In this document: one piece after another, positions 86 to 59,735 of the stretch
How positions within the stretch are numbered: the stretch's first letter is position 1
Layout of the letters: each line of letters starts with the position of its first letter
Assembly (NCBI GenBank): GCA_022606425.2
Contig: JAHDVF020000185.1
Location: 124,001-188,000, forward strand
Length of the DNA stretch: 64,000 nucleotides
Reading direction: 5' to 3'
Source of the DNA: Lepidostoma basale
Taxonomy: Eukaryota > Arthropoda > Insecta > Trichoptera > Lepidostomatidae
Position numbers and translations under genes: made by a program
The notes under the pieces: model-generated
Seen by the model: the letters and a program-made list of their open reading frames with translations, nothing else
Told to the model about the DNA's origin: nothing
Databases searched by the model: none

Positions 86-135
86 ATGCCAACTAGTATT
101 GTTTGGACCCAAGCTTCATCAGGACGATATAAAAA
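86..135 (-). ncRNA. Degenerate hammerhead-like motif, outer arm of a split inverted repeat
   Basis: Read on the minus strand this has an intact CUGAUGA box (116-122), a hairpin, then AAUAC where GAAAC is expected (96-100), then GUU (91-93). Box II is therefore mutated and activity is unlikely. The sequence 60-135 is inverted relative to 710-780, which carries the same family (G). The two arms now enclose a LINE piece and a MITE. Confidence 0.5.
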
Positions 136-144
136 CTAGATAGT

Positions 145-388
145 TATTCTTCTTTCGATGGCGCTACACTCCATGTCGAGCCTTGGCCCCGTCAACTGTC
201 CTCAGCATTCGTCCTCCAATTTGGCACCCGAAGAAGTTGTGCTGCATCCCTCTTTACTTCGTCCTCCCACCTCAGCCTTGATCTTCCTACCCTTCTCCGT
301 CCGCTTGGGTGTCCAGTCATAGTGCGTTTGGGGACCCGTGAGTTCGGCATCTTCTGTACATCTGTCCAACTCAATATTTGTAGCTTTA
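145..388 (-). pseudogene. LINE family F4 3' fragment
   Basis: The minus-strand frame reads a LINE C-terminal tail: residues resembling MPNSRVPKRT, then GRSRLRWEDEVKRD, LLRVPNWRT. This Arg/Trp-rich tail downstream of the reverse transcriptase is shared with the copies at 12410-12799, 17840-18213 and 30003-30375. The upstream part is cut off at 389 by MITE L. No start codon or RT domain is present; it is a dead, 5'-truncated copy. Confidence 0.75.
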
Positions 389-670
389 AAGCCGTGCCAC
401 ACTGTTTTAAACAAGCTCTCCACATCGGTCTCCACCGGCGGTTTAAAACTGTGTAGACACTTGTTTGAAACCAAAATTCGTTTGACCTTCAATAAACTTT
501 GTGGACGAACGCGCATAGTATGCGTGTGGATCCACCGTTTAAACACGCATTCCACGTGTGGAGAGCTTGTTTACAACAGTATGTGGACGCTACACCAACC
601 GTGGGCTCCACAGCTCTCCACCAATGTCACCATTGTGGAGAGCTTGTTTCAAACAGTGTAGCACGGCCTT
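389..670. mobile_element. MITE family L, copy 1 (282 bp)
   Basis: Terminal inverted repeats of about 35 bp begin AAGCCGTGCCACACTGTTTT on the left and end CAGTGTAGCACGGCCTT on the right. A TA dinucleotide lies on both sides (387-388 and 671-672), suggesting TA target duplication as for Tc1/mariner-type elements. It has no coding capacity. It sits inside LINE F4. A second copy spans 26939-27745. Confidence 0.8.
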
Positions 671-704
671 TATGTGCGTGGAGATGTTGGGCGTCTGGTA
701 GTTA

Positions 705-862
705 TTATATCACTCTAATGAAGCTTGGGTATAAGCGAAACATGTTGGCATCAATTATGATAACCATACCGCGTTTAAATATAACTGTTCTTTTATTTTA
801 TATCGATAAATTTAATGTTTCTAACCACAAAGGGAGTGCTTCATATAAAAAATTATAAATAA
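705..862 (+). repeat. HHR repeat family G with degenerate hammerhead
   Basis: The plus strand has CUAAUGA (consensus CUGAUGA, so the essential G5 is changed), an AGCUUG hairpin, GAAAC (743-747 region) and GUU. The bases upstream (GUUAUUAUA) can pair with UAUGAUAAC downstream, giving a long stem I. The following 100 bases, ending near ACCACAAAGGGAGTGCTTCA, recur at 44840-44880 and 47520-47560. Confidence 0.6.
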
Positions 863-1010
863 AAAATTCACAAAATCCACGACTCATTTTTCTTCATTCA
901 AGATTAAGGCGTTAACACTGTGGAATTAATTGCTAATTTGAAAGGAGAATACTAAACACTGTATAATCAATTTAATTTGTTAAATATTTTTACAAAATAA
1001 AAATATTATC

Positions 1011-1350
1011 CACAATATGTTTCGGAGGTGACCTTCTTTATCCTCAGTCAGCTTCACTCGTGCACTCCCTAGGCCCGTCCCCTGTCCATGCAGGACTTAG
1101 GTTAAAACATAATAATAGTAAAAATATATGTTTATTTGCAACCAAGGGGGACCCAGACCACATTTAAGCTACGCTACTCTCCCTCGATGTCCCGCCGTAC
1201 ACACATGGCAATACAACAGCAAAAGATATATATAGCATAAGTGGTTAATATAATCCTTCCAAATTAAAATATAATTATTATATTCATTCGGTGCAACTCC
1301 TTCCTCATCCTCTTTCGGAGGTCCACTCCGAGCCATACATCCATCCTCCG
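1011..1350 (-). repeat. Degenerate hammerhead-like site plus dispersed repeat
   Basis: On the minus strand CUGAGGA (1041-1047) and GAAAC (1019-1023) are present, but the GUH triplet is lost. The bases 1055-1210 recur diverged at 47625-47790 (shared blocks such as TCGTGCACTCCCTAGGCCCG versus TCGTACACTCCCTGGGTCTG, and CCAGACCACATTTAA). The nature of that repeat is unknown. A 63-codon minus-strand frame here is not convincing. Confidence 0.5.
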
Positions 1351-1861
1351 CATAAAACAACCACTAAATCATATTTTCAACATTTCCAACAGACGTAAGA
1401 GGGAAGAACCAGAAGTGAGTAATTTTTTTGTTGGGTTTTACAGAAATAAATGAGATAGAGTGCCAATTAGACTGCTTCTCGATAAAGCCAAAGTGGATTT
1501 AAATTCAACTATTCTAAATTACAAAAACCTCACTCTACGTTTAACCTATTCATTAACTTAATCCCTGACATGCTATTGGAATACGTACAACAACGAGAAC
1601 AAAATCCCACTAATTCAGTCTGTTCAATAAGATTAAAGTTAAACCCCTGTTTGAAATGCTGTTTACATGTTACAGATGAGGAGTAATTAAATAATTAGAA
1701 ACCCGATACGATTTAAGAAAACAAATTTGTTTAAAAATATTATATGGATTAAATTACCCCAAAATTATTTGTTTATTTTTTATAATTGCGCAGGCAGTGA
1801 TTTAAAACTCAAATTAAATTTTATATAACGTAATTCAAATGTTCAAACTATGATTTTGCTC
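1351..1861. other. Unassigned AT-rich stretch
   Basis: No coding similarity, inverted repeat or structured RNA was seen. Only short frames occur. Confidence 0.5.
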
Positions 1862-2195
1862 ATAACTAACTAACTAACCATTACGCCTTTTCCCCGGAGG
1901 AGTGGGCAGACAGGATGGACCGCAACACTGCTCTATCTTAACATAACTCTCGCGTCTCTTCCACATTCACATCATAACACGCACGACTGTTCAGACGTTC
2001 ATTAATTGATTAATTTGGTCATGTCATGTCTTCCTTGGCCTTCCTTGACTTCTCTTTCCATTTACACAACTTGTATATATCGTTTGAGCAACTATCCTAA
2101 TTTTATCTTTCTTCTACCAAATCCAAATTTCACTTCCATACATAAGGATCGGCACTAGAACGCCATTGTACACTGCCATATTTGCTTCAGTCGAT
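1862..2195 (-). pseudogene. LINE F1 (RTE-like) 3' fragment
   Basis: The minus-strand end has the F1 3' signature: the complement of a terminal GTTA tail (AACTAACTAACTAACC), then the complement of the conserved end (TACGCCTTTTCCCCGG). Upstream in the element, traces of the GRPRKTWHDQ region and of the ..LVPILMYGSE.. region (around 2130-2170) are visible but full of frameshifts. This is a 5'-truncated dead copy. Confidence 0.8.
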
Positions 2196-2844
2196 ATATT
2201 TATATTTGCAGTGATGATTTTGAGTGTACCATTTTTTATAATTCCCACAACAACCCCCTTTTTCGATGTTTTTCTCCATTTATCAATAAATTGTAAACAT
2301 GCTTCCCAGATTAATAAATTTGGTAACTTGCTTTGGTCATTACAATAGACATAATCATACTAGCGCATTTTCTACTTTGATGTGCGAAAAACGAAAAATA
2401 TCTGCCCCACGTGAATACCATGATAAGTCTCAGAATGGAATAGTGGACAGAGGGGGTAACAATATATAGATAAGAGATATATTAAATCTGCCATATCTTA
2501 ATCTCTTCTGTCATAATAATGCGATAATCTAAACAATGTGTACATATACACACTATAATAAATCATTGGTAAATTTATCGGATCCATTGTTGCGCTTGTT
2601 GCAAACCAATCCTCAGGATTCTAACTATGAAGAAGATTGTTATGAAGGATAACAACTAGTTGTAGGGCTGCACAATTTTAAAGAAAGACGAATAAATATG
2701 TGGAATGGAAGAATAGACATACTCGTATTATCTTATCCTTAGTGCACCCTGGATAGCGTACTCTAGGACTCTATTGAAAATCCCTATACTCAGGAATAAA
2801 TGGGTATATTTGTTCGTGGTGGTTACTTGCGGCAACGCTAACAT
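2196..2844. other. Unassigned stretch
   Basis: Low-complexity AT-rich DNA. Nothing recognisable was seen on either strand. Confidence 0.4.
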
Positions 2845-2993
2845 CAATTGAACGTTTGAAGTAAAATAGGCATTAAGTACCAAAAAAAAATAAGTATGCA
2901 GTTTACGTATATGACATATAGAACGAAACTGAATACTTAGTTTTTTGTATTTTTTTGGTACTTAAGGCCTATTTTATTGCAACCATTCAATTG
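2845..2993. mobile_element. Foldback MITE S (149 bp)
   Basis: Two arms of about 44 bases, both ending in CAATTG, are inverted around a 60-base centre. The left arm has TAAAATAGGCATTAAGTACC and the right has its complement with a few changes. It has no coding capacity, and no clear target duplication was established. Confidence 0.7.
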
Positions 2994-3008
2994 TTCTACA
3001 CTCGTCAC

Positions 3009-3350
3009 GCAGAACCAACATGCCTTTGGTGATGCCAGAGGGAAGAGCAATTCCGAAGTTCACTTCTGTTGTCTCGGATTTGCACATTTTTAGTGTCTAC
3101 GAGGCAGTGCTCATAAACAATATATTATCACTTCTTGACAGAGTACAGCCCCACTGACGTCGACATATTTTGGATCCTTCTTAAATATGTTGATTCATAT
3201 TATCTATGTAAATGTGTTTTATAAATTTTTATCTTTTAATTGTCATTTTTGGCAAAACTGCTTTATGTCCAAATGAGTCGCTTAAATGTTGTTCGTTTGT
3301 TGTTTCATTTGTGGAAAAATAAAATAAATAAATAAAACATCGATGGTAGC
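3009..3350 (+). pseudogene. LINE family F9 3' end
   Basis: The plus-strand frame 3009-3156 reads RTNMPLVMPEGRAI and ends at a stop after LLDRVQPH. It matches the tail of the longer copy at 57240-57720 (RTNLPLVTPVGRAI) and the insertion at 11221-11501. A 190-base 3' UTR follows, ending in AAATAAATAAATAAA, typical of an A-rich LINE tail. It is 5'-truncated. Confidence 0.8.
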
Positions 3351-3860: not shown

Positions 3861-3861
3861 C

Positions 3862-4440: not shown

Positions 4441-4484
4441 ATGTTTTAATCCTTTGAATTTTAACAGGACGATATGTTCCTCTC

Positions 4485-4815
4485 TCTGCTTTCAATCCTG
4501 GGATTGGTTTGCAGCAATTTCCTCTATTCTTCTCTTCCATTCTTCCCGTCTTGTGCGGCTCTTTTGAAATGAAAGCGCACGTCCACCAACAGGTCCCCCA
4601 GGTACTCTCGGCGTGGGCGTCCCCTAGAGTTTGTCCCCTCGGTCATACCCTCCATTAGGGCATGCAAGAGGCCTTCTTGTCGTATTACATGACCGATCCA
4701 TCATGCACGCCTTTCGGACAAGGTCCTGAGTAGGTGCCTTCCTCCTTCGATTCTTTGGAGAACCTCCTCATTTGTAATGTGGTCTCTCCAGGAAATTCCT
4801 AATAGTCTTCTATAA
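4485..4815 (-). pseudogene. LINE family F3 3' fragment
   Basis: The minus strand encodes, with breaks, the same tail as the plus-strand copy at 49960-50385: NEEVLQRIEG, RRARWIGHVIRQ, EGLLHALMEG, NSRGRPRREYL and a terminal region resembling AANQSQD. It abuts the F2 copy at 3862-4440, so one LINE probably inserted beside the other. Confidence 0.8.
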
Positions 4816-4862
4816 GACCACATCTAATGTTGAATATAGGACCACATCTAATGTTGAATACA
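4811..4862. repeat. Short direct repeat of 24 bases
   Basis: The block ACCACATCTAATGTTGAATA occurs twice in tandem at the 5' edge of the F3 remnant. It looks like a local slippage or template-switch duplication. Confidence 0.7.
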
Positions 4863-5118: not shown

Positions 5119-5372
5119 TATTTTTTTTTTTTTATGTATACAACAGGTCGTTTGAACCCAATTACTGTATACAAATTTTTTTTTTGCTATTATATTGATT
5201 CTCTTGACATGTTATAGGTAGCCAATCTATCGCCATTTTATTGTCACGTGAATTCTACACCAGACCAAAGACAATGTGACAATCACACTGCCATCGCCGG
5301 GAATCGAACCCGGGACCTACGGTTTGGAAGCCAGAGCTCTTACCTCTCTGCCACGAAGGTCGTCGAATATTG
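5119..5372 (-). mobile_element. tRNA-derived SINE, copy 1
   Basis: On the minus strand the head (5288-5362) is tRNA-like. It carries an A-box-like TGGCAGAGAGG, an exact B box GGTTCGATTCC, and a T-arm CCCGGGTTCGATTCCCGG like that of tRNA-Gly(UCC), with CTTCCAA at the anticodon-loop position. No functional acceptor stem is formed. The body contains TTGTCACATTG and ACAATAAAATGGCGATAG; the tail contains a block before the A-rich end that is shared with the other three copies. Transcription of an active parent would be by RNA polymerase III. Confidence 0.85.
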
Positions 5373-6266: not shown

Positions 6267-6302
6267 GACAGCTGTTTCGTCAACCTATGTTGACATCATC
6301 AG
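6267..6302 (-). ncRNA. Hammerhead ribozyme-like core
   Basis: The minus strand reads an exact CUGAUGA (6296-6302), one extra U, stem II GUCAAC/GUUGAC (6 bp) closed by AUAG, GAAAC (6274-6278), an AGCU loop and GUC (6267-6269). All conserved core bases are present. Stem I pairing is weak in the bases either side, so this copy may have decayed outside the core. It fits the type I hammerhead with very short stem III known from Penelope-like elements. Confidence 0.7.
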
Positions 6303-10033: not shown

Positions 10034-10064
10034 GACGTGTTTCGGACAAACAGTCCTTCTTCAG
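10034..10064 (-). ncRNA. Hammerhead ribozyme-like core
   Basis: Minus strand: CUGAAGA (10058-10064), an extra A, stem II GGAC/GUCC with a five-base loop, GAAAC (10039-10043), AC, then GUC (10034-10036). The core matches CUGANGA...GAAA...UH exactly. Stem I starts with two pairs (UA with UA) before an internal loop. Related copies are at 35339-35375 (minus) and 52540-52571 (plus). Confidence 0.75.
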
Positions 10065-11796: not shown

Positions 11797-11852
11797 GTTT
11801 TTAAAACCGACCGGTTTCGCTCTCGCCGGTGCTTCGTCAGGGTTATAAAAAC
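11797..11852 (-). ncRNA. Hammerhead ribozyme, type I-like, well-paired stem I
   Basis: Minus strand: CUGACGA (11834-11840), extra A, a GC-rich stem II hairpin (11819-11832, only partly paired), GAAAC (11814-11818), CG, GUC (11809-11811). Stem I pairs GUUUUUAUAACC (complement of 11841-11852) with GGUUUUAAAAAC (complement of 11797-11808) at 11 of 12 positions. Core boxes and the GUC triplet are intact. The predicted cleavage lies just 3' of the complement of 11809. Confidence 0.8.
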
Positions 11853-13381: not shown

Positions 13382-13520
13382 TTGATGATGTCTTAGCAAG
13401 GCGAAACATGTCATTCCCATAAAATACAGTAAATGTTATATAAAACGGACATTTTCATTCTTATTAATTACTAATATGGAGTTCTACAACATTTTTCAAG
13501 AAGCAATAAATATTAACTAA
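13382..13520 (+). ncRNA. HHR family D: hammerhead-like core and downstream body
   Basis: UUGAUGA (13382-13388, so C3 is U), extra U, stem II GUCUU/AAGGC with loop AGC, GAAAC (13403-13407), AU, GUC (13410-13412). The next 105 bases (ATTCCCATAAAATA, CATTTTCATTCTTATTAATT, ATGGAGTTCTACAACA, AGAAGCAATAAA) are the family D body also seen at 25955-26165, 49551-49790 and 59524-59730. Confidence 0.65.
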
Positions 13521-18779: not shown

Positions 18780-20105
18780 TTAAACATTAATTGTTCAAAT
18801 ATATAATGATGAATGGTGACATTAAAATCATTTATAAAAATGCAATTAATAATAATACTAATATTAAACTAATTTTATATATAGGTAATATAAAAATATA
18901 AAATTATCTGTGTTTATATGACATTGGGAAGCCGACAAATACTGTCTTCGCTTCACCCTTTTCTTTTTCACAAAGAATGATTGTTGTCAAGATGGGTAGA
19001 ATACCAACAAGTGCACACTCCTCTTTCTCCATTAATTAGTTCTTGTGTTGATTTATGACACAAAATACTGCTTGGTATTTGTTTTGGAACTGTCGTGAAC
19101 AAATGAACGCCGTGGTACATTTTTAAAAGTGGAATAAGGAATTTTTAAGAATGAAAAAAAAATCGAATAAATGAGATTTTTCTTACTATCTCTTTCCCTA
19201 ACTGTTCAATAAAATTATAATAAATAGTTAAAGTAAATGGTAATAACATTAAACTATTTTCGAATTGTGTAGGATTTAAAAAAAAATAATTTAAAAGTAA
19301 TATTTGTATTTTAATTGCTCAGAAAAACAATAAATAAAAATAAAAAATAGGTGCATTCCACGAGAGAGATTCAAGTTATTTTAACGTATTAAAATTTTTG
19401 TTTTAATATTTCCTGTATAATGTTTTTTGTATGCTGTATTTAATTTAATGAAAACACCGTTTTTACGGTTTTTTTTCTCGACACGTTTCGAGGCTAACAT
19501 AACATAGATTCATTTTGCAAGAAATTAAAACCTTTAATTAAATTCTACTGTTTGAATGTCTTAAATGTATCAAATGATATTTTTTCTCTATAAATAAACC
19601 ATTAAATATTACAAAATATTAGCACCAATAGCAGTTTAATAAAAAAATCATAAACTGTGACCATTATTACAGTAATGTTTTAAAGTTAAAGTAAATTCTA
19701 AATATCGGCAAAATAGTCGGCGAATGAATTGTTGGCGAGGGTTGGACGAAGGGTTGGGGCGGTTTAAACACGTGTCTTGAGGTCACGTGGCTTCCCCGCT
19801 CACCCCTACCGCTAACCAACCAAAAGGGTAGTACAGAAACCCCTGAATGTAATAACTTCACGAAATTGACGGATAATTACAATATTTTTAATTTACAAGA
19901 TTTAAAAAAAAAGAGAAAATGTATGTTCAAAACGAAAATGAAGCAAAAAACTGTTTTTTGGTGTTTACGTAAGCTACAGTTGGAAAACAATAAATTAAAA
20001 CCACATTACATTTCAAACGAAGGGAATAAAAGAATCGAGTGTTTATTTTCGACGGATAACTTTTTTAAATTTGCTTGGATTTAAATAAGTTATCCTTCGA
20101 AAATA
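18780..20105. other. Unassigned stretch with one hammerhead-like scrap
   Basis: At 19478-19510 the minus strand has GCCUCGAAACGUGUCGAG, the 3' half of HHR family E without an intact box I. The remainder is AT-rich, with a small GC-rich patch at 19735-19830. Confidence 0.4.
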
Positions 20106-20111
20106 AACATA

Positions 20112-22201: not shown

Positions 22202-22543
22202 TTCTTCTTCTTCTTCTCCGGCGCTACAACCCTCGGTGGGTCTTGGCCTCCTCCAAGAATCCATCCCGTCCTGTCTCTGGCCGCCACCTCCCAGTCTTGC
22301 TGCTCCAGGACCCGACAATCTGCCACGGCACCACTCGGCCTACCGATCCTTCTTCGCCCTGCTGGATTGTCATACAACACTCTTTTGGGGGGCTCCAGAT
22401 CTCCCATGCGATGAACGTGCCCTAGCCAGCGCAGTCTGTTTATCTTTATAAACTTGATCACGCTGACGTCCTGGTATAGATCATAGAGCTCTGTGTTGTT
22501 TCTCCTTCTCCACGTCTGACCATCCTTAATGGGTCCGAAGATT
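22202..22543 (-). mobile_element. LINE F4 insertion with 14-bp target duplication
   Basis: CTTTGTATTACAAC occurs on both sides (22188-22201, 22544-22557). The minus strand starts with a GAA-repeat tail and reads RLRWLGHVHRMGDLEPPKR, AGRRRIGRP, VLEQQDWEVAARDRTGW. It is 5'-truncated with no RT domain. Confidence 0.9.
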
Positions 22544-22580
22544 CTTTGTATTACAACACTTTTTATTTTTACTGAACTCA

Positions 22581-22612
22581 GACATGTTTCGATTACAAGT
22601 AACCTTTATCAA
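22581..22612 (-). ncRNA. Hammerhead-like core with U3-A8
   Basis: Minus strand: UUGAUAA (22606-22612), extra A, stem II GGUUAC/GUAAUC, GAAAC (22586-22590), AU, GUC (22581-22583). Box I departs from CUGANGA at positions 3 and 8 together (C to U, G to A), which would keep that tertiary base pair. Confidence 0.6.
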
Positions 22613-22638
22613 TGAAAACAAATTTAAATTTGTATTCG

Positions 22639-22670
22639 TTGATAAAGGTTACTTGTAACCGAAACATGTC
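22639..22670 (+). ncRNA. Hammerhead-like core with U3-A8
   Basis: UUGAUAA (22639-22645), extra A, perfect stem II GGUUAC/GUAACC, GAAAC (22661-22665), AU, GUC (22668-22670). It is the mirror copy of the minus-strand core at 22581-22612. Confidence 0.65.
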
Positions 22671-22725
22671 TGAGTTCAGTTAAAATAAGAAGTGTTGTAA
22701 TACAAAGTGTAACTATATTTATTCA

Positions 22726-22805
22726 ACCTATCGCATGTCATGAGAATCAATATAATATATAAAAAACAAATTGTATAGAATAATTGGGTTGAAACGACCG
22801 TAAAC
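22726..22805 (+). mobile_element. tRNA-derived SINE, copy 2, 3' half
   Basis: ACCTATCGCATGTCATGAGA and the following AATTGGGTTGAAACGACC match the 3' part of SINE copies 1, 3 and 4, restoring collinearity with 21992-22124. Confidence 0.75.
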
Positions 22806-31932: not shown

Positions 31933-32394
31933 AAAAAATGTGTATTTTATATTTCTAATTCTAATAAAATCGTAAAATTTTCATATAAAATTATATTCTA
32001 TGATAACGATCAACGTTGCTTACAAAATACCTTATTATTAAGATGAAAGACCCGGAAAATGAACAAGTTCGAACCAACGTGTCTTGTATTTGAAACTGGT
32101 TTGAAATTAAAACACTTATAATTTATTATTAAGAGTAAAATGTGAGTCCTATTTAATATAAATGTGATTTTTTATATATTTTTTTTCATTTGTAACCCAG
32201 TCTGTATGTCAAACAGGTGGTCTTGATATCCTGTTGAAGTTCTGGAAACAATTATAAGACTATATGCTAAAATGAAATGGTGTTAGAAAAGAAAACATTA
32301 GAGTTTTTATTTTAAAATGTTAAACTATGAATGGGAAAACAAATTATTATGTTAATATTAATAAAATAATTTGAAGAAATATTGCTTCTTACTA
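31933..32394. other. Unassigned stretch
   Basis: Nothing recognisable. Confidence 0.35.
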
Positions 32395-32465
32395 ACTAAC
32401 TAACTAACTAACCATCACGCCGTCTCTCCGAAGGGGTAGGCAGAAAGAATGGACTGCCGCACCTT
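32395..32465 (-). pseudogene. LINE F1 3'-end scrap
   Basis: The complement of the GTTA tail (five units) and the F1 terminus (CATCACGCCGTCTCTCCGAA, GGACTGCCGCAC). No more of the element is present. Confidence 0.75.
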
Positions 32466-32794
32466 TCACTGCTTCTTACTTGTTTTAATAATAATAAGTG
32501 CATGTTAGGGTGTCCCTTATATGGGCAAATTTTTTTGTTTTTGGATTATTGAAATGCATACCACCTAATTGTGTTGAATAGTCTACTAGTTACCCAAATA
32601 CCGAATTTCAACTTCCTACGTTAATTCTAACCCGTGCTGACTTGCCCTCAAAGTTTTAGAAAATAGCTGCTTTAAGTGTCTCTTAAATGTAGATGATCAA
32701 TTTAAACCATTATGTTAGATAAATATTGATGAAAACATATATTTATATAATGCTTTTCTTGGAATTATCAAAAAAGATCCAAATCTATATTTAT

Positions 32795-34443: not shown

Positions 34444-34820
34444 GGAGGCGGTAGCCTCTTCGCATTGTGTTAATAAAGTAGTTTGCTAAATGCTAAACAA
34501 TCATTCTTCATAGATGGCGTTAGTGGGTGGATTGTATAGATTAATCTTAAAAAATTAATTAGTACAATCAAATCTACATAGATGGCTAACTGGAACTGAC
34601 ACGTGAAGATAGGTATGGATTTGGAGTATATATACAACTTCCAAAAATGTATCATGCATGATCATAATAACAATGGTGGAATGGGGAATGTTGTAATTAC
34701 ATAAAGCGTGCGCTTAACCCAACCAATGACAGGTCATAAGTCCTGTAAACACCTTGATCATCCATATTCAGTTTCCAGTTTGTTTCTTCGTCTCTATTGA
34801 GATACAATTAAAAATTTAAA
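34444..34820. repeat. Direct duplication, copy 1 (MITE A-containing)
   Basis: 377 bases repeated 517 bases downstream with about three differences. Most of it is MITE A (reversed relative to 51937-52509), ending GAGATACAATTAAAAA. The left A terminus is replaced by unrelated sequence (GGAGGCGGTAGCCTCTTCGC). Confidence 0.9.
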
Positions 34821-34960: not shown

Positions 34961-35336
34961 GGAGGCGGTAGCCTCTTCGCATTGTGTTAATAAAGTAGTT
35001 TGCTAAATGCTAAACAATCATTCTTCATAGATGGCGTTAGTGGGTGGATTGTATAGATTAATCTTAAAAATTAATTAGTACAATCAAATCTACATAGATG
35101 GCTAACTGGAACTGACACGTGAAGATAAGTATGGATTTGGAGTATATATACAACTTCCAAAAATGTATCATGCATGATCATAATAACAATGGTGGAATGG
35201 GGAATGTTGTAATTACATAAAGCGTGCGCTTAACCCAACCAATGACAGGTCATAAGTCCTGTAAACACCTTGATCATCCATATTCAGTTTCCAGTTTGTT
35301 TTTTCGTCTCTATTGAGATACAATTAAAAATTTAAA
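34961..35336. repeat. Direct duplication, copy 2
   Basis: Near-identical to 34444-34820: one A missing from an A-run, one G/A change and one C/T change. The 140 bases between the copies contain a B-type block (AAAATCCAGGATTCGTATAC). Confidence 0.9.
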
Positions 35337-35338
35337 CA

Positions 35339-35377
35339 CAAACGTGTTTCGGACATCGCAGCCCCTTAATCAGTGTA
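35339..35377 (-). ncRNA. Hammerhead-like motif, decayed
   Basis: Minus strand: CUGAUUA (G8 changed), AGGGGC...UGUCC hairpin, GAAAC, AC, GUU. Same family as 10034-10064 and 52540-52571. Box I position 8 is altered, so it is probably inactive. Confidence 0.5.
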
Positions 35378-41116: not shown

Positions 41117-42043
41117 CGAGGTCTGTTCAAAAAGTATCGCGAATTTTGTGTTTTTTCAAAAATTATTTATATATTTATGAATTTCTATTTTGTCCCCTTC
41201 AAAGTGATCCCAACCAGATATTATACACTTGTGCCAACGTTTTTTTCAATCCTCGAAGCACCCCAAAAAATCATTTTTTGTGATCTTGTTCAGCTCCTCC
41301 TTCGATGCCGTCTTTCTCTCCTCAATCGTAGCCTAGCGTCGTCCTTTCATGGGCCTCTTCAGTTTCGGGAACAAGAAAAAGTCACAGGGGGTCAGATCTG
41401 GGGAATACGGTGGCTGCGGCATTATTGGTGTGTTGTTTTGGCCAAAAATTCGCGCACAAGCAGATGCGAAATTGAGCAATTTTGGTACGAATTTCGCGGC
41501 GACCGATCTCATGCCCAAATCATTGGTAAAAATCAAATGGCACGAGCCAAGCGATATGTTTAAGTCTTCAACAACTTTTCTAGCGGTGATTCGACGATTG
41601 GCCAATACTATGTTATTCACTTCATCAATGTTTTCGTCTGTTGTTGACGTGCTCGGGCGTCCGGCAGGCTCTTTTTCGTTCACATCTTCTCGGTCCTCTG
41701 AGAACATTTCGTACCACCGATAAACGTTGCTTTGGTCCAAGATAGCTTCACCATATGCCACAGTCAACATTCGGAATGCGTCCGGGGACTTAATTTTGTT
41801 TTTCACTCAAAATTTGATACAGATTCTTTGATCCATTTTTTTGGAGTGGGCAAAAATCGAAGACGAGCCAAAACACGTGCAAGCAAAGTGGCTCTCAAAA
41901 ATTAACTGAACATTCAAACTGGCCGAACTTATCGGCATAAATGAGAGACATAAGTACCAACATAACGCCACAAAAAAATCAAAAATCGAATATACGTAAC
42001 CGGCGGAAATTCAAAATTCGCGATACTTTTTGAACATACCTCG
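41117..42043 (-). mobile_element. Mariner internal-deletion derivative (927 bp)
   Basis: TA lies on both sides (41115-41116, 42044-42045). The terminal repeats start CGAGGTCTGTTCAAAAAGTA on the left and mirror as CGAGGTATGTTCAAAAAGTA on the right, about 30 bases. The length is about 350 bp short of a typical 1.3-kb mariner because of a deletion in the transposase gene. It is inserted in LINE F1. Confidence 0.9.
41333..41806 (-). pseudogene. Mariner transposase, internally deleted
   Basis: The 157-codon minus-strand frame has the helix-turn-helix half (about residues 5-45), the GRPSTSTTDENIDEV linker (49-63) and the second DNA-binding part (NRRITARKVVEDLNISLGSC, residues 70-89). It then jumps from LLNF (110-113) to ARIFGQNNTPIMPQPPYSPD (118-137) and DFFLFPKLKRPMKGRR. 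The third catalytic Asp region (SPDLTPCDFF, 135-144) remains. The segments with the first two catalytic Asps (GDE and HDNAPAH blocks in the family) are gone, so it cannot catalyse transposition. A full mariner transposase is about 345 residues. The plus-strand frame 41033-41563 is a shadow of this region. Confidence 0.9.
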
Positions 42044-44274: not shown

Positions 44275-44589
44275 TTTGCAAAAATAGAAGTAGCGAGAAT
44301 GAGTTGCAAAGAGTGTGTGTGAGATAGTAGGATATTATTCACTCTTTACACTACAATACGCGACAATGCATTACACTTGAAATATGTTTTATCGTTTTAG
44401 TTGATTTATGTTGGATTAGCGATATAATTTATTGAATAATAATTTATTATTTTAATCAGATTTTTTAACACAATATTTATTAACATTAAGGTTAGTATAA
44501 AATAAGTGAGGAGTACAGAAGCACCCTTGAGGTGAGTTATTCACGAAAAAGGCGCTATGAAAATGAGCCTAATTGTTATTATTATTAAT
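44275..44589. other. Unassigned stretch
   Basis: Nothing recognised. Confidence 0.35.
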
Positions 44590-44890
44590 ATTTTTTATTA
44601 TTATTTGTGTTTAAAATAAAATAAAAACACTGTCCTTTGTTTTTCACCACTATGCGGTCATTTCAATAGCCGACTAGTTTCGCTTGTACCCAAGCTTCCT
44701 CATAGTTATTACGAAGCCCTGAGGAAGCTTGGGTACAAGCGAAACTAGTCGGCTATTAAAATAACCGCTTAGTGGTGAAAAACAAAGTACAGTGTTTTTA
44801 TTTTATTTTATTTTAAATACAAAAATTATAAAAAAATTTAAATGTCTAACCACAAAGTGAATGCTTCATACCAAAATTTTATTATTTTTG
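44590..44890. repeat. HHR family G palindrome
   Basis: Two arms (about 44610-44700 and 44712-44815), from AAAACACTGT at the edge inward to GGAAGCTTGGGTACAAGCGA, are inverted around a short centre. The plus arm holds an intact hammerhead (44705-44765). The minus arm (44665-44700) has AUGAGGA in place of CUGAGGA. The G body continues to about 44880 (AACCACAAAGTGAATGCTTC). Confidence 0.8.
44705..44765 (+). ncRNA. Hammerhead ribozyme, type I-like, complete structure
   Basis: Box I CUGAGGA (44719-44725), one extra A, stem II GCUUG/CAAGC with GGUA loop, box II GAAAC (44741-44745), UA, GUC (44748-44750). Stem I pairs GCC (44716-44718) with GGC (44751-44753) and, across an internal loop, GUUAUU (44705-44710) with AAUAAC (44760-44765). 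Every conserved core base is present. Predicted cleavage is between 44750 and 44751. The one extra base after A9 recalls the plus-strand hammerhead of a chrysanthemum viroid, where it is tolerated. Confidence 0.85.
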
Positions 44891-46990: not shown

Positions 46991-47086
46991 AAGTATATGT
47001 AAAGGAAAAATAAATAAACTTTGGTGAGTATTTGTTACGTATAGATATCAAATAACAAAACACATATAATTATAATAATTAATGCC

Positions 47087-47118
47087 AACTAGTTTCGCTT
47101 GGATCCAAGTATCATCAG
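47087..47118 (-). ncRNA. Hammerhead ribozyme-like core
   Basis: Minus strand: exact CUGAUGA (47112-47118), extra U, stem II CUUG/CAAG with an A-C mismatch at its base, GAAAC (47092-47096), UA, GUU (47087-47089). GUU is a permitted though weaker cleavage triplet. Confidence 0.65.
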
Positions 47119-47219
47119 GACAATACAATAACATAGTTATTATATTTCCCTGATGGGTCCAAGCGAAACTAGACGGCATCAATTATAATAACCATCTGAT
47201 TATTATAATTGATGATTAA

Positions 47220-49959: not shown

Positions 49960-50385
49960 TTTTCTCGACATGTCTCGACGACAAGGTTTGACACATTCAT
50001 CACCGGGAGAACTAGAGGCTTTTGAGATGTGGTCCTATAGAAGACTATTAGGAACTTCCTGGAGAGACCACATCACGAATGAGGAAGTTCTTCAAGGAAT
50101 CGAAGGAGGAAGGTACCTGCTCAGGACCTTGTCCGAAAGGCGTGCCAGATGGATCGGCCATGTAATATGTCAAGAAGGTCTCTTGCATGCCATAATGGAG
50201 GGTATGACCGAGGGGACAAACTCTAGGGGACGCCCACGCCGAGAGTACCTGGAGGACCTGTTGGTGGACGTGCGCTGCTCATCATATGCAGATTTCAAAA
50301 GAGCCGCACAAGACAGGGAAGAATTGAAGAGAAGAATAGAAGAATAGAAGAAATTGCTGCAAACTAATCCCAGGATTGAAACTTT
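49960..50385 (+). pseudogene. LINE family F3 3' copy
   Basis: One open frame reads LEAFEMWSYRRLLGTSWRDH, ITNEEVLQGIEGGRYLLRTL, SERRARWIGHVICQEGLLHA, NSRGRPRREYLEDLLVD, AAQDREELKRRIEE and stop. It is the post-RT C-terminal tail of a LINE and has no RT domain. The first 20 or so codons of the frame come from an HHR family E scrap (TTTGTTTTTCTCGACATGTC), which marks the 5' truncation point. Confidence 0.85.
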
Positions 50386-51936: not shown

Positions 51937-52509
51937 AAGGATTAATTGTATCTCAATAGAGACGAAGATGCAAATTGGAAACAGAATATGGTGGTCGAGG
52001 TGTTTACAGGACTTATGACCTGCCATTGGTTGGATTAAGTGCACGCTTTATGTAATACAACATTCCCCATTCCACCCTTCTTACGACCACCACACCTGAC
52101 AAATTTTTGGAAGTTGCATATATGCTACTTTGTAACATCAAACTTCACATGTTTTATTTCAATCTACACACTAGCGCCATCTATGAAGATTGGATTAAGC
52201 ACCAAGCAGAAGATTTTTTAGTTTAGAACATTAAGTTTCTTCACTAAATTTGCATCACTAAGTTCACTAAATTTGCATCTTCGTCTCTATTGAGATACAA
52301 TTTAAGACAGAAACATACTATTAACACGCGACGTGGCGTGTTTACTCCCACCACCGGCAACACGTCGATCTAGCTCGTCATGGCGTCGCGTCGGGTGTTC
52401 ATAGTGTGATTCTGTCCATAGAAAACAATACAATTTGATTCGACTCAACACGCATCACGTGGCATCGGGTGGCGTGGCGTGTTAATAGTATGTTTCTGCC
52501 TTAATCCTT
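51937..52509. mobile_element. MITE A, copy A2, carrying MITE K
   Basis: The left end is AAGGATTAATTGTATCTCAA; the right end GAGATACAATTTAA is separated from its last bases (TTAATCCTT) by MITE K. The interior matches A1 throughout. Confidence 0.85.
52306..52500. mobile_element. MITE K (195 bp), TTAA-type
   Basis: TTAA on both sides (52302-52305, 52501-52504). The terminal repeats are GACAGAAACATACTATTAAC on the left and the mirror of GGCAGAAACATACTATTAAC on the right. TTAA targeting is the piggyBac-type signature. The interior is GC-rich (ACGCGACGTGGCGTG) and partly self-complementary. Confidence 0.85.
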
Positions 52510-52539: not shown

Positions 52540-52571
52540 CTGAGGAAGGATCGGGTTGTCCGAAACTTGTC
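52540..52571 (+). ncRNA. Hammerhead ribozyme-like core
   Basis: CUGAGGA (52540-52546), extra A, stem II GGAU/GUCC with a six-base loop, GAAAC (52562-52566), UU, GUC (52569-52571). The core is fully conserved. Two base pairs of stem I (CA with UG) are directly visible, then AU-rich flanks. Its body (TTTAATTTTTTTATAAAGTT) matches that of 10034-10064. Confidence 0.75.
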
Positions 52572-53679: not shown

Positions 53680-54164
53680 AAGAGCAATAAATAAATTAGC
53701 AGATGTTTATTTATTAATTTATTTTGTGACATGTGACTTGGCAGAGGTAGAAGTTGCTCTAAGTATTGTCTGGAAACATTTCCCTGAAACAACTGCCATC
53801 CGGTGAGTCTCATTCTTCTGCGGCGAAATCTAATGCACGCTTCCTGATTGCATTACTCGCCAATTGTCCGTTTCCCGTAGGGCGCTGGACTGAAAAAATA
53901 TAACCCTTGATGGCGATACCCGGAAAGGCTCTCCGGTATATTGGGAGGGTGGGACGGATGTATCCTTTTAGGATATAATTTGAAGCGGAAATTTTACAAA
54001 GTGTGTCCTTTTCAAAAATGGAATTCGTCGTTTAGTATAAATGTTCATACAATATTCGTCTAGCCAGACAAATTAAAAAGTATAAATTAGAATTTGAAAC
54101 ACAATACTGTATATTTTCCACCTTAGTTTATTCAATAACTTCAAATAATATTTTAGAAAAACTT
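53680..54164. other. Unassigned stretch
   Basis: Nothing recognised. Confidence 0.35.
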
Positions 54165-54360
54165 AAGGCGTTAACACTGGAATTCCATAAGGGCTTATTT
54201 TTATGAATTTTTCTGTTTTTCCTTTTTTCCACTTTTGAGTTTATTTTTCTCAACATTTATATCGTTCTCCCGATGATGAAGGTGTAAGCCTTCGAAACAT
54301 GTCGAGAAAAATGAACTCAAAAGCGGAAAAATTTAAATTCATAAAAATTCGTTATATAAC
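54165..54360. repeat. HHR family E palindrome
   Basis: Outer GGCGTTAACACTGGAATTCC; arms with TTTTGAGTTTATTTTTCTCA and its mirror. The plus arm carries a hammerhead core at 54270-54303. A second, larger copy is at 58980-59200. Confidence 0.7.
54270..54303 (+). ncRNA. Hammerhead-like core, U4 changed
   Basis: CCGAUGA (54270-54276; C where U4 is expected), extra U, stem II GAAGG/CCUUC, GAAAC (54294-54298), AU, GUC (54301-54303). Stem I pairs UUCUC with GAGAA. The same U4-to-C change is in the other family E copy (59119-59153), so it may be fixed in the family. Confidence 0.6.
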
Positions 54361-56040: not shown

Positions 56041-56044
56041 TTCA

Positions 56045-56268: not shown

Positions 56269-56269
56269 C

Positions 56270-57070
56270 TTCTTCTCTGGTTTCAATCCTGGGATTGGTT
56301 TGCAGCAATTTCCTCCATTATTCTCTTCCACTTTTCCCTGTCTTGTGCGGCTCTTTTGAGATCTGCATATGATGAGCAGCATACGTCCACCAACAGGTCC
56401 TCCAGGTACTCTCGGCGTGGGCGTCCCCTAGAGTTTGTCCCCTCGATCATACCCTCCATTATGGCATGCAAGAGACCTTCTTGACGTATTACATGGCCGA
56501 TCCATCTTGCACGCCTTTCGGACAAGGTCCTGAGCAGGTGCCTTCATCCTTCGATTCCTTGAAGAACTTCCTCATTCGTGATGTGGTCTCTCCAGGAAAT
56601 TCCGAAGAGTCTTCTATAGGACCACATCTCAAAAGCCTCTAGTCTCCGCTTATCCCTTTCGGATAGGCACCATGTCTCGCAACCGTACATCAAGACACTC
56701 CATACATAGGTCTTGATGAGGAGTATTCTCAGTTTTAGGTCTATATTATTTGATTCTATTATTTTCGACCTTTTGTTAAATGCTAGCCTAGCCTGATGTA
56801 TACGGCTGTCGACCTCGCTCTTAGACCGACCGTCCCATGTTATTTTGCTCCCGAGGTAGACAAACTCCTTTGTGTTCTTTAGTGGAACTCCTGACATCAC
56901 TACTCTCATCTGGTGCTGCGTTCGGCCTACAGTCAGCAGCTTTGTTTTGTCCTTATTTATCTTCATGTTGTAGCTATCTTGAAGAATGTCTTGCAAAGTA
57001 TCTAAGGCCTCCTGCAGTTCCTCCTCACTTTCAGCAACCATAGCAATCCTATTGATATTGCTCCACATTC
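56270..57070 (-). pseudogene. LINE family F3, longest copy
   Basis: Two minus-strand frames. 56544-57068 reads IAMVAESEEELQEALDTLQD, NMKINKDKTKLLTVGR, VPLKNTKEFVYLGSKITWDG, SRIHQARLAFNKRSKIIES, KTYVWSVLMYGCETWCLSER, LEAFEMWSYRRLFGISWRDH, ITNEEVLQGIEG. 56283-56525 continues SERRARWIGHVIRQEGLLHA, NSRGRPRREYLEDLLVDVC to AANQSQD. IAMVAES and EFVYLGS are the segments just after the RT active site. The YADD box itself is missing at the 5' break near 57062. A frame shift near 56530 separates the two frames. Confidence 0.88.
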
Positions 57071-57239: not shown

Positions 57240-57720
57240 AATGCATATTTAGTTTAGATTCACTAATGGTACAGGTAAAATATTATACACATACAACATA
57301 ACACAAGGAACGCATTAGTGATGGTTCGACATTAGTAAGACAAGATACTTTCCAAAGTCAAGAGTATTTGACCCCTGAACGTAATTTCACTAATATGAAA
57401 GACGTTGATCTCCGAGGAGACCACGTTCAGCAGACTAATTGCTCTTCCCACCGGTGTCACCAGAGGCAGATTGGTTCTGGCGGCCGGTAGGTAAAACAAT
57501 CTGTGCTGTCGCTGTCGGAGATATCTGTCGGGGACAAAAAGACCAACATCCTCCAGTACGGCCGAGTTCTCGAAGTATCCCCTAATTAATCTAAAGACAT
57601 GGGTTATTAGATGTCCACCTCTTCGAAGCTGTAAAGAATTGGTTCCGAGCATTCTCAAAAGAAATGCCGTGGGATAGAGCCACGGATAACTACCATACTC
57701 CCTCATGTAGAGATACCTCA
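57240..57720 (-). pseudogene. LINE family F9, longest copy
   Basis: The minus-strand frame 57332-57721 reads MREYGSYPWLYPTAFLLRML, GTNSLQLRRGGHLITHVFRL, FVPDRYLRQRQHRLFYLPAA, RTNLPLVTPVGRAISLLNVV, FHISEITFRGQILLTLESIL and stop. The H/LFY.P..RTN..L.SP block is the usual C-terminal end of a group of insect LINEs. The RT domain is missing. Confidence 0.85.
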
Positions 57721-57724
57721 AAAA

Positions 57725-58154
57725 AAATTCTGAACCCTCTTCAGCATAACCTTGACTCCATATTGCGAATTCTGATTACGAATTATTTGAATTTTGGCGG
57801 GTCTCAATGTGTAAGTAGTGACGATGGAGTGTGAAGCTGTGGGTTGGGGTGAAGGGGTGGCATGGCTGTCGAAATGTCCCGCACTTCTTAGTAAATTAAA
57901 TTTTAAGTAGCGACACGGGACGCGTTTTGCAAAGCAGACACATATTTTATTTTGCGCCGTCGCAAAAATCGATATTAAGCCACCTTTATCGAATTCGGAT
58001 TGTCCCGCAAAGTTTCGACCGAGTTTCAACGATGTAACAATTGAAGGCTGCTAATACTAAGATGCTAAGTGGTTTCAACATAGAACAAAGAGGAAGCGAA
58101 ATAAACTGTTTTTTTTTATAGAATAATATTATTTAAATTCCACCTAGGTTTACG
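57725..58154. other. Unassigned stretch
   Basis: A 103-codon minus frame (57718-58029) has no recognised motif. It could be upstream F9 in another frame, but I cannot support that. Confidence 0.35.
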
Positions 58155-58205
58155 GCTACGACCGGTTTCTGCAGTTCTCTACCATCATCTGTAGAGAACT
58201 GCAAA
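58155..58205 (-). ncRNA. Hammerhead-like motif, family H3
   Basis: Minus strand: CAGAUGA (A at position 4), a GGUAGAGAACUGC hairpin, GAAAC, CG, GUC, then GUAGCC. This is the best family H3 member, but with a changed U4 and poor stem II it is probably inactive. Confidence 0.5.
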
Positions 58206-58335
58206 AAGGTAGCTAATCTATCATCATTTTGCTGTGTGAGTATCATACTCGTATATTTGACAAAGTCAGCATAAATTGTCTTATCTCTCAACATACCTTT
58301 GATGATGCCAGTCGAGAGAGCAAGTATGCTGGCGA
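58206..58335. repeat. SINE and LINE F9 scraps
   Basis: 58206-58242 (minus) is SINE body (GGTAGCTAATCTATCATCAT). 58285-58330 (plus) reads NIPLMMPVERASM, the F9 RTNMPLVMP block. Confidence 0.5.
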
Positions 58336-58978
58336 ATGCAATAATCTTATTGAAGATTAACTTTCTTTTTATTATTTATTAATAAAACATGCTCAAGAGA
58401 ATAGTACTTTAAATAAATAAAATATATTTAGCCTTCAAAACTTGCACATATGTAGTTTGTTTGCTGTACAGTTCCAAAGTGACGCATTAAAAGTGTTTAA
58501 AAAATGTGTGAAATCTCTCAGAGAAACAAATTGATGTGTCCGTATTTAACCAATGTAATAAGTTCAATGGTTAAATTCGTTAAAGAAATGTTGTGACGAT
58601 TAGTGACGAAGTGTCGCAATTCCCAATCATTTTTTTGTACAAATAGTGTTTGAAAGTGTTTGAAATTTTCGATTTCAATTGTTTTTGTGTACAGAATAGA
58701 AACAACGCAATTTGTTTTTATTTTTCAATTAGTTTAACCAAACAACAAAACGTAGTGAATGCAACTGAACAATCGTGTTTTGTCCCCTACTAACTCCCAT
58801 CGTTTCAGATCTTTCAGATCTATCAGAATGATAGAACATTTTTCAATTCGTTTTAACCCTTGTGGGCACGTAGAAAACTCTAAACTATTTTTACGAAACC
58901 AATTTCTCTCGTCTACCAAATATTTGATATATTTAATAATTGTGATATACGTTTCAGCAAGGAATTAGGCTTTTGATA
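58336..58978. other. Unassigned stretch
   Basis: AT-rich, nothing recognised. Confidence 0.35.
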
Positions 58979-58979
58979 A

Positions 58980-59205
58980 ACTTTAAGCGTTAACATCTTG
59001 GAATTCCATAATGAAGAATTAAAACACTATTTTTTCGACTTTTGAGTTTATTTTCCACGTCATTTTTTTAAGGTTTTACATGTTCATCTTCTGGAGAACG
59101 AACTAAGGTTTCGTTCTACCGACGATGAAGGTGTAAAACCTTCGAAACACGTCGAGTATAATAAACCCAAAAGTGGAAAATACATTTATTCAATCCATAA
59201 AAAAA
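58980..59205. repeat. HHR family E palindrome, with core
   Basis: Arms with TTTTGAGTTTATTTTCC and its mirror, bounded by AGCGTTAACATCTTGGAATT. The plus core (59119-59153) is CCGACGA, extra U, stem II GAAGGU/ACCUUC (6 bp), GAAAC, AC, GUC. The minus arm core is decayed. Confidence 0.7.
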
Positions 59206-59223
59206 TATCAAGGAATTAGTCAT

Positions 59224-59235
59224 GGGGGGGGGGGG
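59224..59235. repeat. Run of 12 G
   Basis: A homopolymer of G in otherwise AT-rich DNA. The length is likely to vary or be misread. Confidence 0.8.
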
Positions 59236-59364
59236 CAATTTGATGATGTCCTAGTAACATGTTACCCTATAAAACAAAATAAAACTCTTGAAAACATACG
59301 TTTTAAATTATTGTTCACGAAACGATAAATTTATGTAATTATTATTTCAATAGTTTAAATAATT

Positions 59365-59515
59365 AACTAACTAACTAACTAACTAACCATCACGCCGTCT
59401 CCCCGAAAGGGTAGGCAGAAAGAATGGATTGCCACACTTTTACTGATGCGGCACTCCATCCTTCTCTTTTCGCTCCGCGGGAGACGCGGTGTGATGGGTT
59501 GCGAACCTCATCGCC
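59365..59515 (-). repeat. Palindromic pair of F1 3' ends
   Basis: The complement of the GTTA tail (five units) and F1 terminus (59365-59450) meets an inverted F1-like terminus (GATGCGGCACTCCATCCTTC to GGTGTGATGGG). This mirrors 49130-49250, so it is a repeated composite unit rather than two independent events. Confidence 0.65.
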
Positions 59516-59523
59516 ACTTAAAT

Positions 59524-59735
59524 AATTAATACGAATGAAAACGTCAGTTTTCTAGAAGTTTAATTATATTTTATGAGAACGACATGTTTCGCCCTTCTAA
59601 GGCATTATCAAATGTAGAAGGGCGAAACATGTCATTCCCATAAAACATAATACAATTTCTAGAAAACTGACGTTTTCATTCGTATTAATTATTTAATATG
59701 GAGTTTTACATCATTGTTCAAGAAACAATAAATCA
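59524..59735. repeat. HHR family D palindrome, best copy
   Basis: 59524-59690 folds almost fully: AATTAATACGAATGAAAACG at the left is mirrored at the right. The minus core (59581-59611) is UUGAUAA, extra U, stem II GCCUU/AGGGC, GAAAC, AU, GUC. The plus arm begins within stem II (59614), so box I is present only once. The D body follows to 59735. Confidence 0.8.
59581..59611 (-). ncRNA. Hammerhead-like core with U3-A8
   Basis: Minus strand: UUGAUAA (59605-59611), extra U (59604), stem II GCCUU/AGGGC, GAAAC (59586-59590), AU, GUC (59581-59583). Positions 3 and 8 are changed together, as in the unrelated repeat at 22581-22670. Confidence 0.6.

What the first reader, a model, noticed from the sequence alone, without database searches (positions are those of the whole stretch)
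86..59735. About 25 hammerhead-ribozyme-like motifs spread through one 64-kb window, in several repeat families
Seen: on both strands the order CUGANGA-like box, hairpin, GAAAC, 2-4 bases, GUC/GUU recurs. The best sites are 44705-44765, 11797-11852, 10034-10064, 52540-52571, 47087-47118, 6267-6302, 22581-22612, 22639-22670, 13382-13412, 59581-59611, 54270-54303 and 59119-59153. Different families have unrelated stem II and body sequences but keep the same core, so the core is conserved as RNA structure. Known: Penelope-like elements and retrozymes carry type I hammerheads with minimal stem III. Inference: these repeats are non-autonomous, circular-RNA-type retroelements moved by a Penelope-like element located elsewhere.
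Basis: partly seen in the sequence, partly recalled or inferred. Interest (0 to 1): 0.9.

Follow-up and report, generated by a model that had tools for sequence, protein, structure and literature searches.

The report
Penelope retrotransposon ends with hammerhead-like RNAs
The scattered ribozyme-like motifs in this insect-like DNA are best read as the ends of short, often mirror-image copies of Penelope retrotransposons, a known kind of mobile element, with one extra base in what should be the catalytic centre.

Summary
The motifs are real: 10 window sites match the strict descriptor, against 0.025 in shuffles. All 10 carry one extra A/T between A9 and stem II; none has canonical spacing, and no Rfam hammerhead family hits the window. 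Across 17 families stem I pairs beyond permuted partners (53 of 68 against 31.8), and stem III is palindromic in 16 of 22 scored copies. So the fold is hammerhead-like and dimer-type.

The repeats are Penelope-like element (PLE) ends. The same assembly holds an RT plus GIY-YIG open frame whose 3' end carries the same +1 motif. Sampled copies show PLE anatomy: head-to-head arms, a tail on one arm encoding an ORF start (window 59698, MEFYIIVQETINQYL), and target-site duplications (14 of 18 F2 twins against 2.7 in controls). No duplication was convincing for the six window palindromes.

The circular-RNA/retrozyme inference is not supported: no tandem units in the window, and the sampled F2 copies extend upstream of the predicted cleavage site. 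Dispersed PLE hammerheads are already published. Open: whether the +1 core is known or active, and whether stem III pairs two templates.

The parts
6267..6302 (-). hammerhead-like motif, family F2 (core CTGATGA, extra T, 6-bp stem II, stem III palindrome ACAGCTGT)
   Evidence: no local palindrome found around it
10034..10064 (-). hammerhead-like motif, family F4, single copy (extra A; stem III ACACGT, not palindromic)
13382..13412 (+). hammerhead-like motif, family F1 (core TTGATGA, extra T), followed by an ORF-start-like tail at 13476
13476..13520 (+). tail with start codon of a PLE-like ORF, MEFYNIFQEAININ then stop
   Evidence: by eye
22544..22726 (.). F12 head-to-head twin; palindrome 22544-22707 at 94% identity
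   Evidence: relatives L208 and L213 have TSDs and a one-sided tail
22581..22612 (-). motif in left arm (core TTGATAA, extra A)
22639..22670 (+). motif in right arm; 5-bp stem I ATTCG/TGAGT
44585..44841 (.). F9 head-to-head palindrome (86% identity)
44719..44750 (+). motif (core CTGAGGA, extra A, stem I AGCC/GGCT, stem III ACTAGT); the left-arm copy is 44672-44703 on the minus strand
52540..52571 (+). motif, family F4, single copy (stem III ACTTGT, not palindromic)
54205..54350 (.). F3 twin palindrome (70% identity)
54270..54303 (+). motif, family F3 (core CCGATGA, extra T, stem I TTCTC/GAGAA)
54155..54188 (-). tail on the left side of the F3 twin with ORF-start-like ATGGAATTCCAG (MEFQC then stop)
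59032..59180 (.). F3 twin palindrome (77% identity) with motif 59119-59153 (+)
58986..59009 (-). tail on the left side of this twin: MEFQDVNA then stop
59518..59743 (.). F1 twin; palindrome 59518-59696 (88%), the right arm runs about 47 nt further
59581..59611 (-). motif of the F1 twin's left arm (core TTGATAA, extra T)
59698..59757 (+). tail of the F1 twin's right arm: open frame MEFYIIVQETINQYLMLSKH, resembling the N-terminus of Penelope-clade proteins
11809..11840 (-). motif with degenerate stem II (core CTGACGA, extra A, stem I AACC/GGTT, stem III ACCGGT)
47087..47118 (-). motif with stem II base mismatch, in palindrome 47070-47191 (74%)
715..746 (+). degenerate copy (core CTAATGA, extra A)
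35342..35373 (-). degenerate copy (core CTGATTA), family F4

Best explanation
The motifs are hammerhead-like RNA elements at the mRNA 5' end / pseudo-LTR-ORF junction of several Penelope-like element (PLE) lineages. The window holds minimal PLE copies consisting mainly of that junction. Proposed mechanism: transcription starts just upstream of the motif (inferred; a TATA-like box lies about 35 nt upstream in the coding PLE); the PLE protein cuts both target strands and starts reverse transcription inside the RNA just after the ORF start (shown for the Anolis PLE in vitro, inferred here); two cDNAs run to the RNA 5' end and are joined head-to-head, leaving a palindromic twin with a tail on one arm and a target-site duplication (twins, tails and duplications shown here in sampled copies). 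The RNA folds stem I and stem II and can form stem III between two molecules through a palindrome (fold supported by covariation; dimer inferred). Ribozyme cleavage is not needed for insertion and leaves no clear scar in the copies sampled.
For: Motif excess with exactly one extra base: window 10 against 0.025; 17 stretches taken from 17 contigs, 47 against 19.2 with no excess at 2 or 3 extra bases (17 against 18.4; 10 against 18.4). Stem I covariation 53 of 68 against 31.8, 0 of 20,000 permutations reached it. The assembly holds a 758-codon open frame with RVT_1 and GIY-YIG, homologous to insect proteins; its 3' ends carry the +1 motif with stem I CAGT/GCTG and stem III ACCGGT, then ATGAACTTCCATCAAGAG.., and coding copies are head-to-head twins (L037 palindrome 2,283 bp at 99.5%). 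F2: by eye in all 20 loci read, similarity stops about 14 nt upstream of C3; 18 of 20 have an inverted second arm, but 16 of the 20 had been picked for one; TSD of at least 8 bp in 14 of 18 against 2.68 in controls. F3: 18 of 40 matches start exactly 14 nt upstream of C3. F12: tail on the right arm in L208 and L210, on the left in L213, with 11-12 bp TSDs in L208 and L213. ORF-start tails in the window resemble N-termini of PLE homologues. The same architecture (inverted pLTR, optional tail on one of them, pLTR including the ORF start, 8-10 bp TSDs, 5' palindromes) is described for Adineta vaga Penelope (PMC3846280, passages), and internal RT initiation near the ORF start with a dispensable hammerhead for an Anolis PLE (PMC11167929, passages).
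Against: No PLE coding sequence lies in the window or in L001-L018 (0 hits; the 4 coding loci used as positive control hit), so the link rests on shared motif, architecture and ORF-start tails. No convincing TSD was found for the six window palindromes. 7 of 15 window sites are not in a local palindrome. In the coding PLE the motif has A6 changed to T. Stem I is weak in F1, F2, F6 and F7. The tail resemblance is by eye, without a statistical test, and four of the five window tails contain early stops.
Confidence: 0.9

Rival explanations
1. One reading: non-autonomous retrozyme-type elements whose hammerheads cut tandem transcripts into monomers that circularise and are then reverse-transcribed by a PLE.
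For: Hammerhead-like fold; a PLE is present; published metazoan retrozymes carry type I hammerheads and are proposed to depend on PLEs (PMC7229834 and PMC7761336, passages).
Against: Published retrozymes are tandem repeats of about 150-450 bp with canonical, mostly active cores. Here TRF at score 80 finds only 24- and 29-nt units in the window; motif pairs within 500 bp are 9 head-to-head, 2 same-orientation, 2 tail-to-tail; the core is not canonical; in 18 F2 twins no partner arm starts at the cleavage site, and in F3 2 of 25 do.
Confidence: 0.05
2. Foldback DNA transposons (MITE-like) with terminal inverted repeats, in which the hammerhead resemblance is incidental and the dyad matters as DNA.
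For: Palindromes of 150-260 bp, TSDs, and a constant arm spacing of 74 nt in 19 loci of family F12.
Against: The ends are not symmetrical: the tail is on one arm only, right or left; tails carry ORF starts; coding PLEs show the same twin anatomy; stem I covaries between families; single-arm copies exist (L055, L056).
Confidence: 0.03
3. Chance resemblance or compositional artefact.
For: The genome is AT-rich and relaxed descriptors do hit shuffles (6.15 per window).
Against: Strict sites exceed shuffles by about 400-fold and only at one spacing; the repeats are families with many copies.
Confidence: 0.01

Closest known systems
Minimal type I hammerheads of Penelope-like elements (Cervera and de la Pena 2014; Lunse, Weinberg and Breaker 2017; neither paper is held here, seen only as cited in PMC7761336 and PMC6155905)
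   Same: According to PMC7761336 and PMC6155905 (passages): thousands of minimal type I hammerheads lacking most of helix III, mostly dispersed in non-coding DNA, some in PLE pseudo-LTRs, proposed to act as dimers. The window sites fit that description.
   Different: One extra A/T between A9 and stem II in all 10 strict window sites; whether the published consensus has this base could not be checked.
Anolis carolinensis PLE 'PAc' (PMC11167929, passages)
   Same: Motif at the pLTR-ORF junction, a start codon at the beginning of stem II, cut site 26 bp downstream of it (about 27 nt in the PLE here), two RT start sites giving an optional tail, and an inserted RNA that need not be cleaved.
   Different: Here the ATG inside the motif opens only a short frame and the longer ORF starts further on. 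PAc is described as tandem or partial-tandem, the copies here mostly as inverted twins.
Adineta vaga Penelope elements (PMC3846280, passages)
   Same: Head-to-head inverted pLTRs, tail on one of them, pLTR including the first ORF codons, TATA-like box, 5' palindromes, TSDs of 8-10 bp.
   Different: The passages seen have no mention of a ribozyme (0 occurrences of 'ribozyme'); here the short motif-only copies far outnumber coding ones in the sampled DNA.
Metazoan retrozymes (PMC7229834, passages)
   Same: Type I hammerhead in small repeats.
   Different: Retrozymes are tandem, canonical and circular; none of these was seen here.
Rfam RF00163 Hammerhead_1
   Same: Stems I and II, CUGANGA-like and GAAA boxes, GUH.
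   Different: No hit in the window; one genome hit over the cut-off (L001, 38.7 bits; only 73 of 94,533 candidates scored), which by eye is again the one-extra-base form inside an inverted pair.

Membership tests
Hammerhead ribozyme, type I (RF00163) | covariance-model score over the gathering cut-off | tested here: not met
   0 hammerhead matches in the window at gathering or at E<=10
Hammerhead ribozyme, type I (RF00163) | conserved core with stem II directly after A9 | tested here: not met
   10 of 10 strict sites have one extra base, 0 have none; positions 3 and 4 also vary (TT, CC, TC)
Hammerhead ribozyme, type I (RF00163) | stems I and II | tested here: met
   stem II by descriptor; stem I 53 of 68 pairs against 31.8 permuted; weak in some families
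Hammerhead ribozyme, type I (RF00163) | stem III | tested here: inconclusive
   16 of 22 scored rows are self-complementary palindromes with no loop, so only a dimer could form it
Hammerhead ribozyme, type I (RF00163) | self-cleavage at GUH | not testable with these tools
   needs RNA
Penelope-like element copies | autonomous RT + GIY-YIG element in the genome sharing the terminal motif | tested here: met
Penelope-like element copies | head-to-head inverted pLTRs with a tail on one of them | tested here: met
   F2, F12, F3, coding PLE
Penelope-like element copies | pLTR/tail encodes the ORF start | tested here: met
   window 59698 + and others, L035/L036; resemblance by eye
Penelope-like element copies | target-site duplication | tested here: met
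   14 of 18 F2 twins, control 2.68; not found convincingly for the six window palindromes
Penelope-like element copies | PLE coding sequence in the window itself | tested here: not met
   0 tblastn hits; not required of truncated copies
Metazoan retrozyme | tandem units of about 150-450 bp | tested here: not met
Metazoan retrozyme | circular RNA | not testable with these tools
   no RNA data

The most novel reading that the evidence does not exclude
The PLE hammerhead of this genome has a fixed remodelled core (one extra A/U after A9, with variable positions 3 and 4) that is kept mainly as a dimerisation device rather than for cutting: its palindromic stem III (ACATGT, ACTAGT, ACCGGT, ACAGCTGT, ACACGTGT in different families) would link two uncleaved PLE RNAs at their 5' ends, so that the PLE protein inserts them as head-to-head twins, much as a retroviral dimer-initiation palindrome pairs two genomes. 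Short internally primed transcripts then spread as about 10^5 motif-only twins and singles.
Probability: 0.15. Interest if true: 0.65.

Novelty: new member of a known kind. Interest (0 to 1): 0.35.

Why it matters
It turns a puzzling set of dispersed ribozyme-like motifs into one coherent object: minimal Penelope copies with a defined 5' end, a one-sided ORF-start tail and head-to-head joining. Reviews call the role of these motifs a mystery (PMC7761336, passage). The anatomy here suggests why so many motif-only copies exist (reverse transcription starts just downstream of the motif and runs to the nearby mRNA 5' end) and makes two questions testable: whether the +1 core cuts at all, and whether the palindromic stem III pairs two templates.

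Tried and rejected
Rejected: canonical hammerhead (no Rfam hit; one extra base); retrozyme tandem units; DNA MITE (asymmetric tails, ORF starts); that the short repeats encode a protein just downstream of the motif (translations of 19 sites show no shared long frame). Looked for a cleavage scar: F2 partner arms start at query position 2-7 in 16 of 18 and at 22 and 41 in the other two, none at 49; F3 partner matches start at 23-29 in 10 of 25 and at the base after the predicted cut in 2 of 25, the rest spread. No clear cluster, too few to exclude a minority of cleaved templates. Constant arm spacing of 74 nt in 19 F12 loci was first read as amplification of the palindrome as a unit; tails on either side fit independent joining of two cDNAs at a palindromic RNA 5' end as well, so this is left open. 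Scans of viral contigs for the +1 form (66 stretches) and the canonical form (84) were not used: I judge the numbers chance-level for that collection, without a computed control. A search for the 5' ends of short copies of the coding PLE did not complete.

Not done: covariance model of the +1 motif; structure prediction; any RNA data; the host species was not identified.
Full report
What was checked. The window is G000:C764:124001-188000 of an unnamed 769-Mb assembly. All 12 listed sites are present. A strict descriptor finds 10 sites with exactly one extra base between the CUGANGA-like box and stem II, none with canonical spacing, and one with two extra bases that looks accidental; 40 dinucleotide shuffles give 0.025, 0.15 and 0.075. 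A relaxed descriptor gives 20 sites with one extra base against 6.15 in shuffles, and 7, 9 and 8 against 7.05, 7.15 and 6.95 at zero, two and three extra bases. Rfam finds no hammerhead in the window at its cut-off or at E<=10.

Not only this window. In 17 stretches of 10 kb from 17 contigs (20 were asked for; three contigs were too short), the relaxed scan gives 47 sites with one extra base against 19.2 in shuffles, 24 against 18.0 at canonical spacing, 17 against 18.4 and 10 against 18.4 at two and three extra bases. The excess corresponds to roughly 10^5 copies genome-wide, a crude extrapolation. Among the 38 better-scoring sites in those stretches and the window the extra base is T 28 times and A 10 times, never C or G.

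RNA-level evidence. One copy from each of 17 families was tested for stem I: 53 of 68 positions pair against 31.8 when partners are permuted, and 0 of 20,000 permutations reached the observed value. Families F9, F11 and F13, and F4 and F14, look related by eye, so the number of independent families is somewhat lower. Stem III is self-complementary in 16 of 22 rows that could be scored and not in six (F3b, F4, F4b, F4d, F6, F16). F12 and F1 show T3 with A8, which could keep the C3-G8 pair of the hammerhead core as T-A (that this pair exists and tolerates exchange is from PMC11167929 passages, and general knowledge). Published insertions elsewhere in the core lowered activity (PMC3088659, passages).

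The autonomous element. A GIY-YIG search of the assembly gave 62 matches, with 150 of 541 candidates scored. Two loci, L034 and L035, hold a 758-codon open frame with RVT_1 and GIY-YIG; their flanks are alike, so they may be one locus assembled twice. Named homologues include butterfly, locust, beetle, psyllid and ant proteins, and a crinoid. Downstream of the ORF, L035, L036 and L037 carry ACCAGTCTGTCGATGCCAGCGAGCCTGGCGAAACCGGTCGCTG, i.e. the same +1 motif with A6 changed to T, stem I CAGT/GCTG and stem III ACCGGT, then about 80 nt later ATGAACTTCCATCAAGAGATTTCAG. A TATATAAAGG box lies about 35 nt upstream of the motif (by eye). Coding copies are themselves head-to-head twins: L037 is a 2,283-bp palindrome at 99.5%, L036 has 871-bp arms at 99.4%, and L034 and L035 have the ORF flanked by inverted 3' ends.

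Anatomy of the short copies. F2: the search gave 40 primary matches (40 of 637 candidates scored) and 21 opposite-strand partner arms beside them. In the 20 loci read, similarity stops about 14 nt upstream of C3 by eye; 18 have a second arm, but 16 of the 20 had been chosen because one was listed; of the other four, two have one. One arm is long (to an ATGGACTATTTA tail), the other ends about 46 nt earlier. Direct repeats of at least 8 bases flank 14 of 18 twins, against a mean of 2.68 when flanks are mixed. F3: 18 of 40 primary matches start exactly 14 nt upstream of C3 and 23 of 40 within three bases of that. F12: 11- and 12-bp duplications bound L208 and L213, and the ATGAATCCACA tail is on the right arm in L208 and L210 and on the left in L213. 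In the window, tails read MEFYIIVQETINQYLMLSKH (59698 +), MEFYNIFQEAININ* (13476 +), MEFYIIV* (26125 +), MEFQDVNA* (59009 -) and MEFQC* (54188 -); Penelope homologues begin MDFRKVTPDSINYIK (P0007), MNYHKVTASQIDYFK (P0021) and MEFHKLKLDLVNYVK (P0014). A loose ATG pattern also matches unrelated places, so the resemblance is a reading by eye.

Comparison with the literature seen. PMC3846280 (passages) describes for Adineta vaga Penelope an inverted pLTR, a 31-bp tail optionally at the 3' end of one inverted pLTR, a pLTR including the first ORF codons, a TATA box, palindromes at the 5' end, head-to-head arrangement as the most frequent one, and 8-10 bp TSDs. PMC11167929 (passages) reports for an Anolis PLE internal RT initiation at two adjacent sites that explains the tail, cutting of both target strands, a hammerhead at the pLTR-ORF junction that cuts only with protein present, insertion unaffected by ribozyme-dead mutants, and no RNA-seq ends at the cleavage site. 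PMC7761336 and PMC6155905 (passages) report thousands of dispersed minimal type I hammerheads in metazoan genomes and hammerheads in all available PLE sequences. The two primary papers could not be read, so whether the extra base is already described is unknown; seven paper searches were answered and the papers opened from them gave no passage on it.

Interpretation. The window elements are minimal Penelope copies. The model: RNA starts just upstream of the motif; PLE-driven reverse transcription starts inside the beginning of the ORF and runs to the RNA 5' end; two such products are joined head-to-head. Shown here: defined 5' end, one-sided tail and duplications in sampled families, the same motif in a coding PLE. 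Inferred: transcription start, dual priming, dimer formation. Against it or incomplete: no PLE coding sequence in 237 kb (window and L001-L018), no convincing duplication at the six window palindromes, 7 of 15 window sites not in a palindrome, weak stem I in several families.

Cleavage. If the motif cut its RNA before reverse transcription, copies should begin just after GUC. None of 18 F2 partner arms does; 2 of 25 F3 partner matches do, one of which was read (L228) and starts exactly there. The window's own F3 left arm starts within a few bases of that point. This is no clear cluster, but it does not exclude that a minority of templates were cleaved.

Noticed in passing
window 5289-5360 (-): tRNA-like sequence (Rfam tRNA 32.9 bits; ARAGORN gives no clear anticodon, 'tcca'); tRNA pseudogene or SINE head.
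   Followed up: partly
window 41333-41806 (-): ORF of 157 aa that looks like a mariner transposase fragment (recognised by eye, no search).
   Followed up: no
window 56544-57068 (-), with related DNA near 50011-50344 and 4574-4825: ORF of 174 aa that looks like an RTE-type reverse transcriptase fragment (by eye).
   Followed up: no
window, families D3 and D13 (e.g. 32391-32466, 59366-59441): 18 copies in the two listed families of a CACGCCGTCTCYCCGAAGGGGTAGGCAG motif, often next to (ACTA)n; probably LINE 3' ends.
   Followed up: no
window, family D16 (e.g. 35295-35338, 52272-52315): Repeats of TTCGTCTCTATTGAGATACAATT with a small internal dyad, several close to F4 motif sites.
   Followed up: no
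window 34550-34820 and 35066-35336: Two direct copies of 271 nt, 99% identical, 516 nt apart.
   Followed up: no
L019 (G000:C102:22626-22847): A 623-codon open frame that looks like a bacterial UvrC protein on a contig of this assembly; probably an endosymbiont or contaminant contig (by eye).
   Followed up: no
window 22540-22711, 54211-54344, 2819-3017, 20040-20109: Sub-threshold Rfam microRNA-family matches; the first two lie on the palindromic twins described here, the others were not examined.
   Followed up: partly
L001:1501-1880: The only listed RF00163 genome hit over the cut-off is, by eye, a +1-type motif with an 8-nt palindrome ACACGTGT in an inverted pair; Rfam's alignment bridges it with a long insert.
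   Followed up: partly
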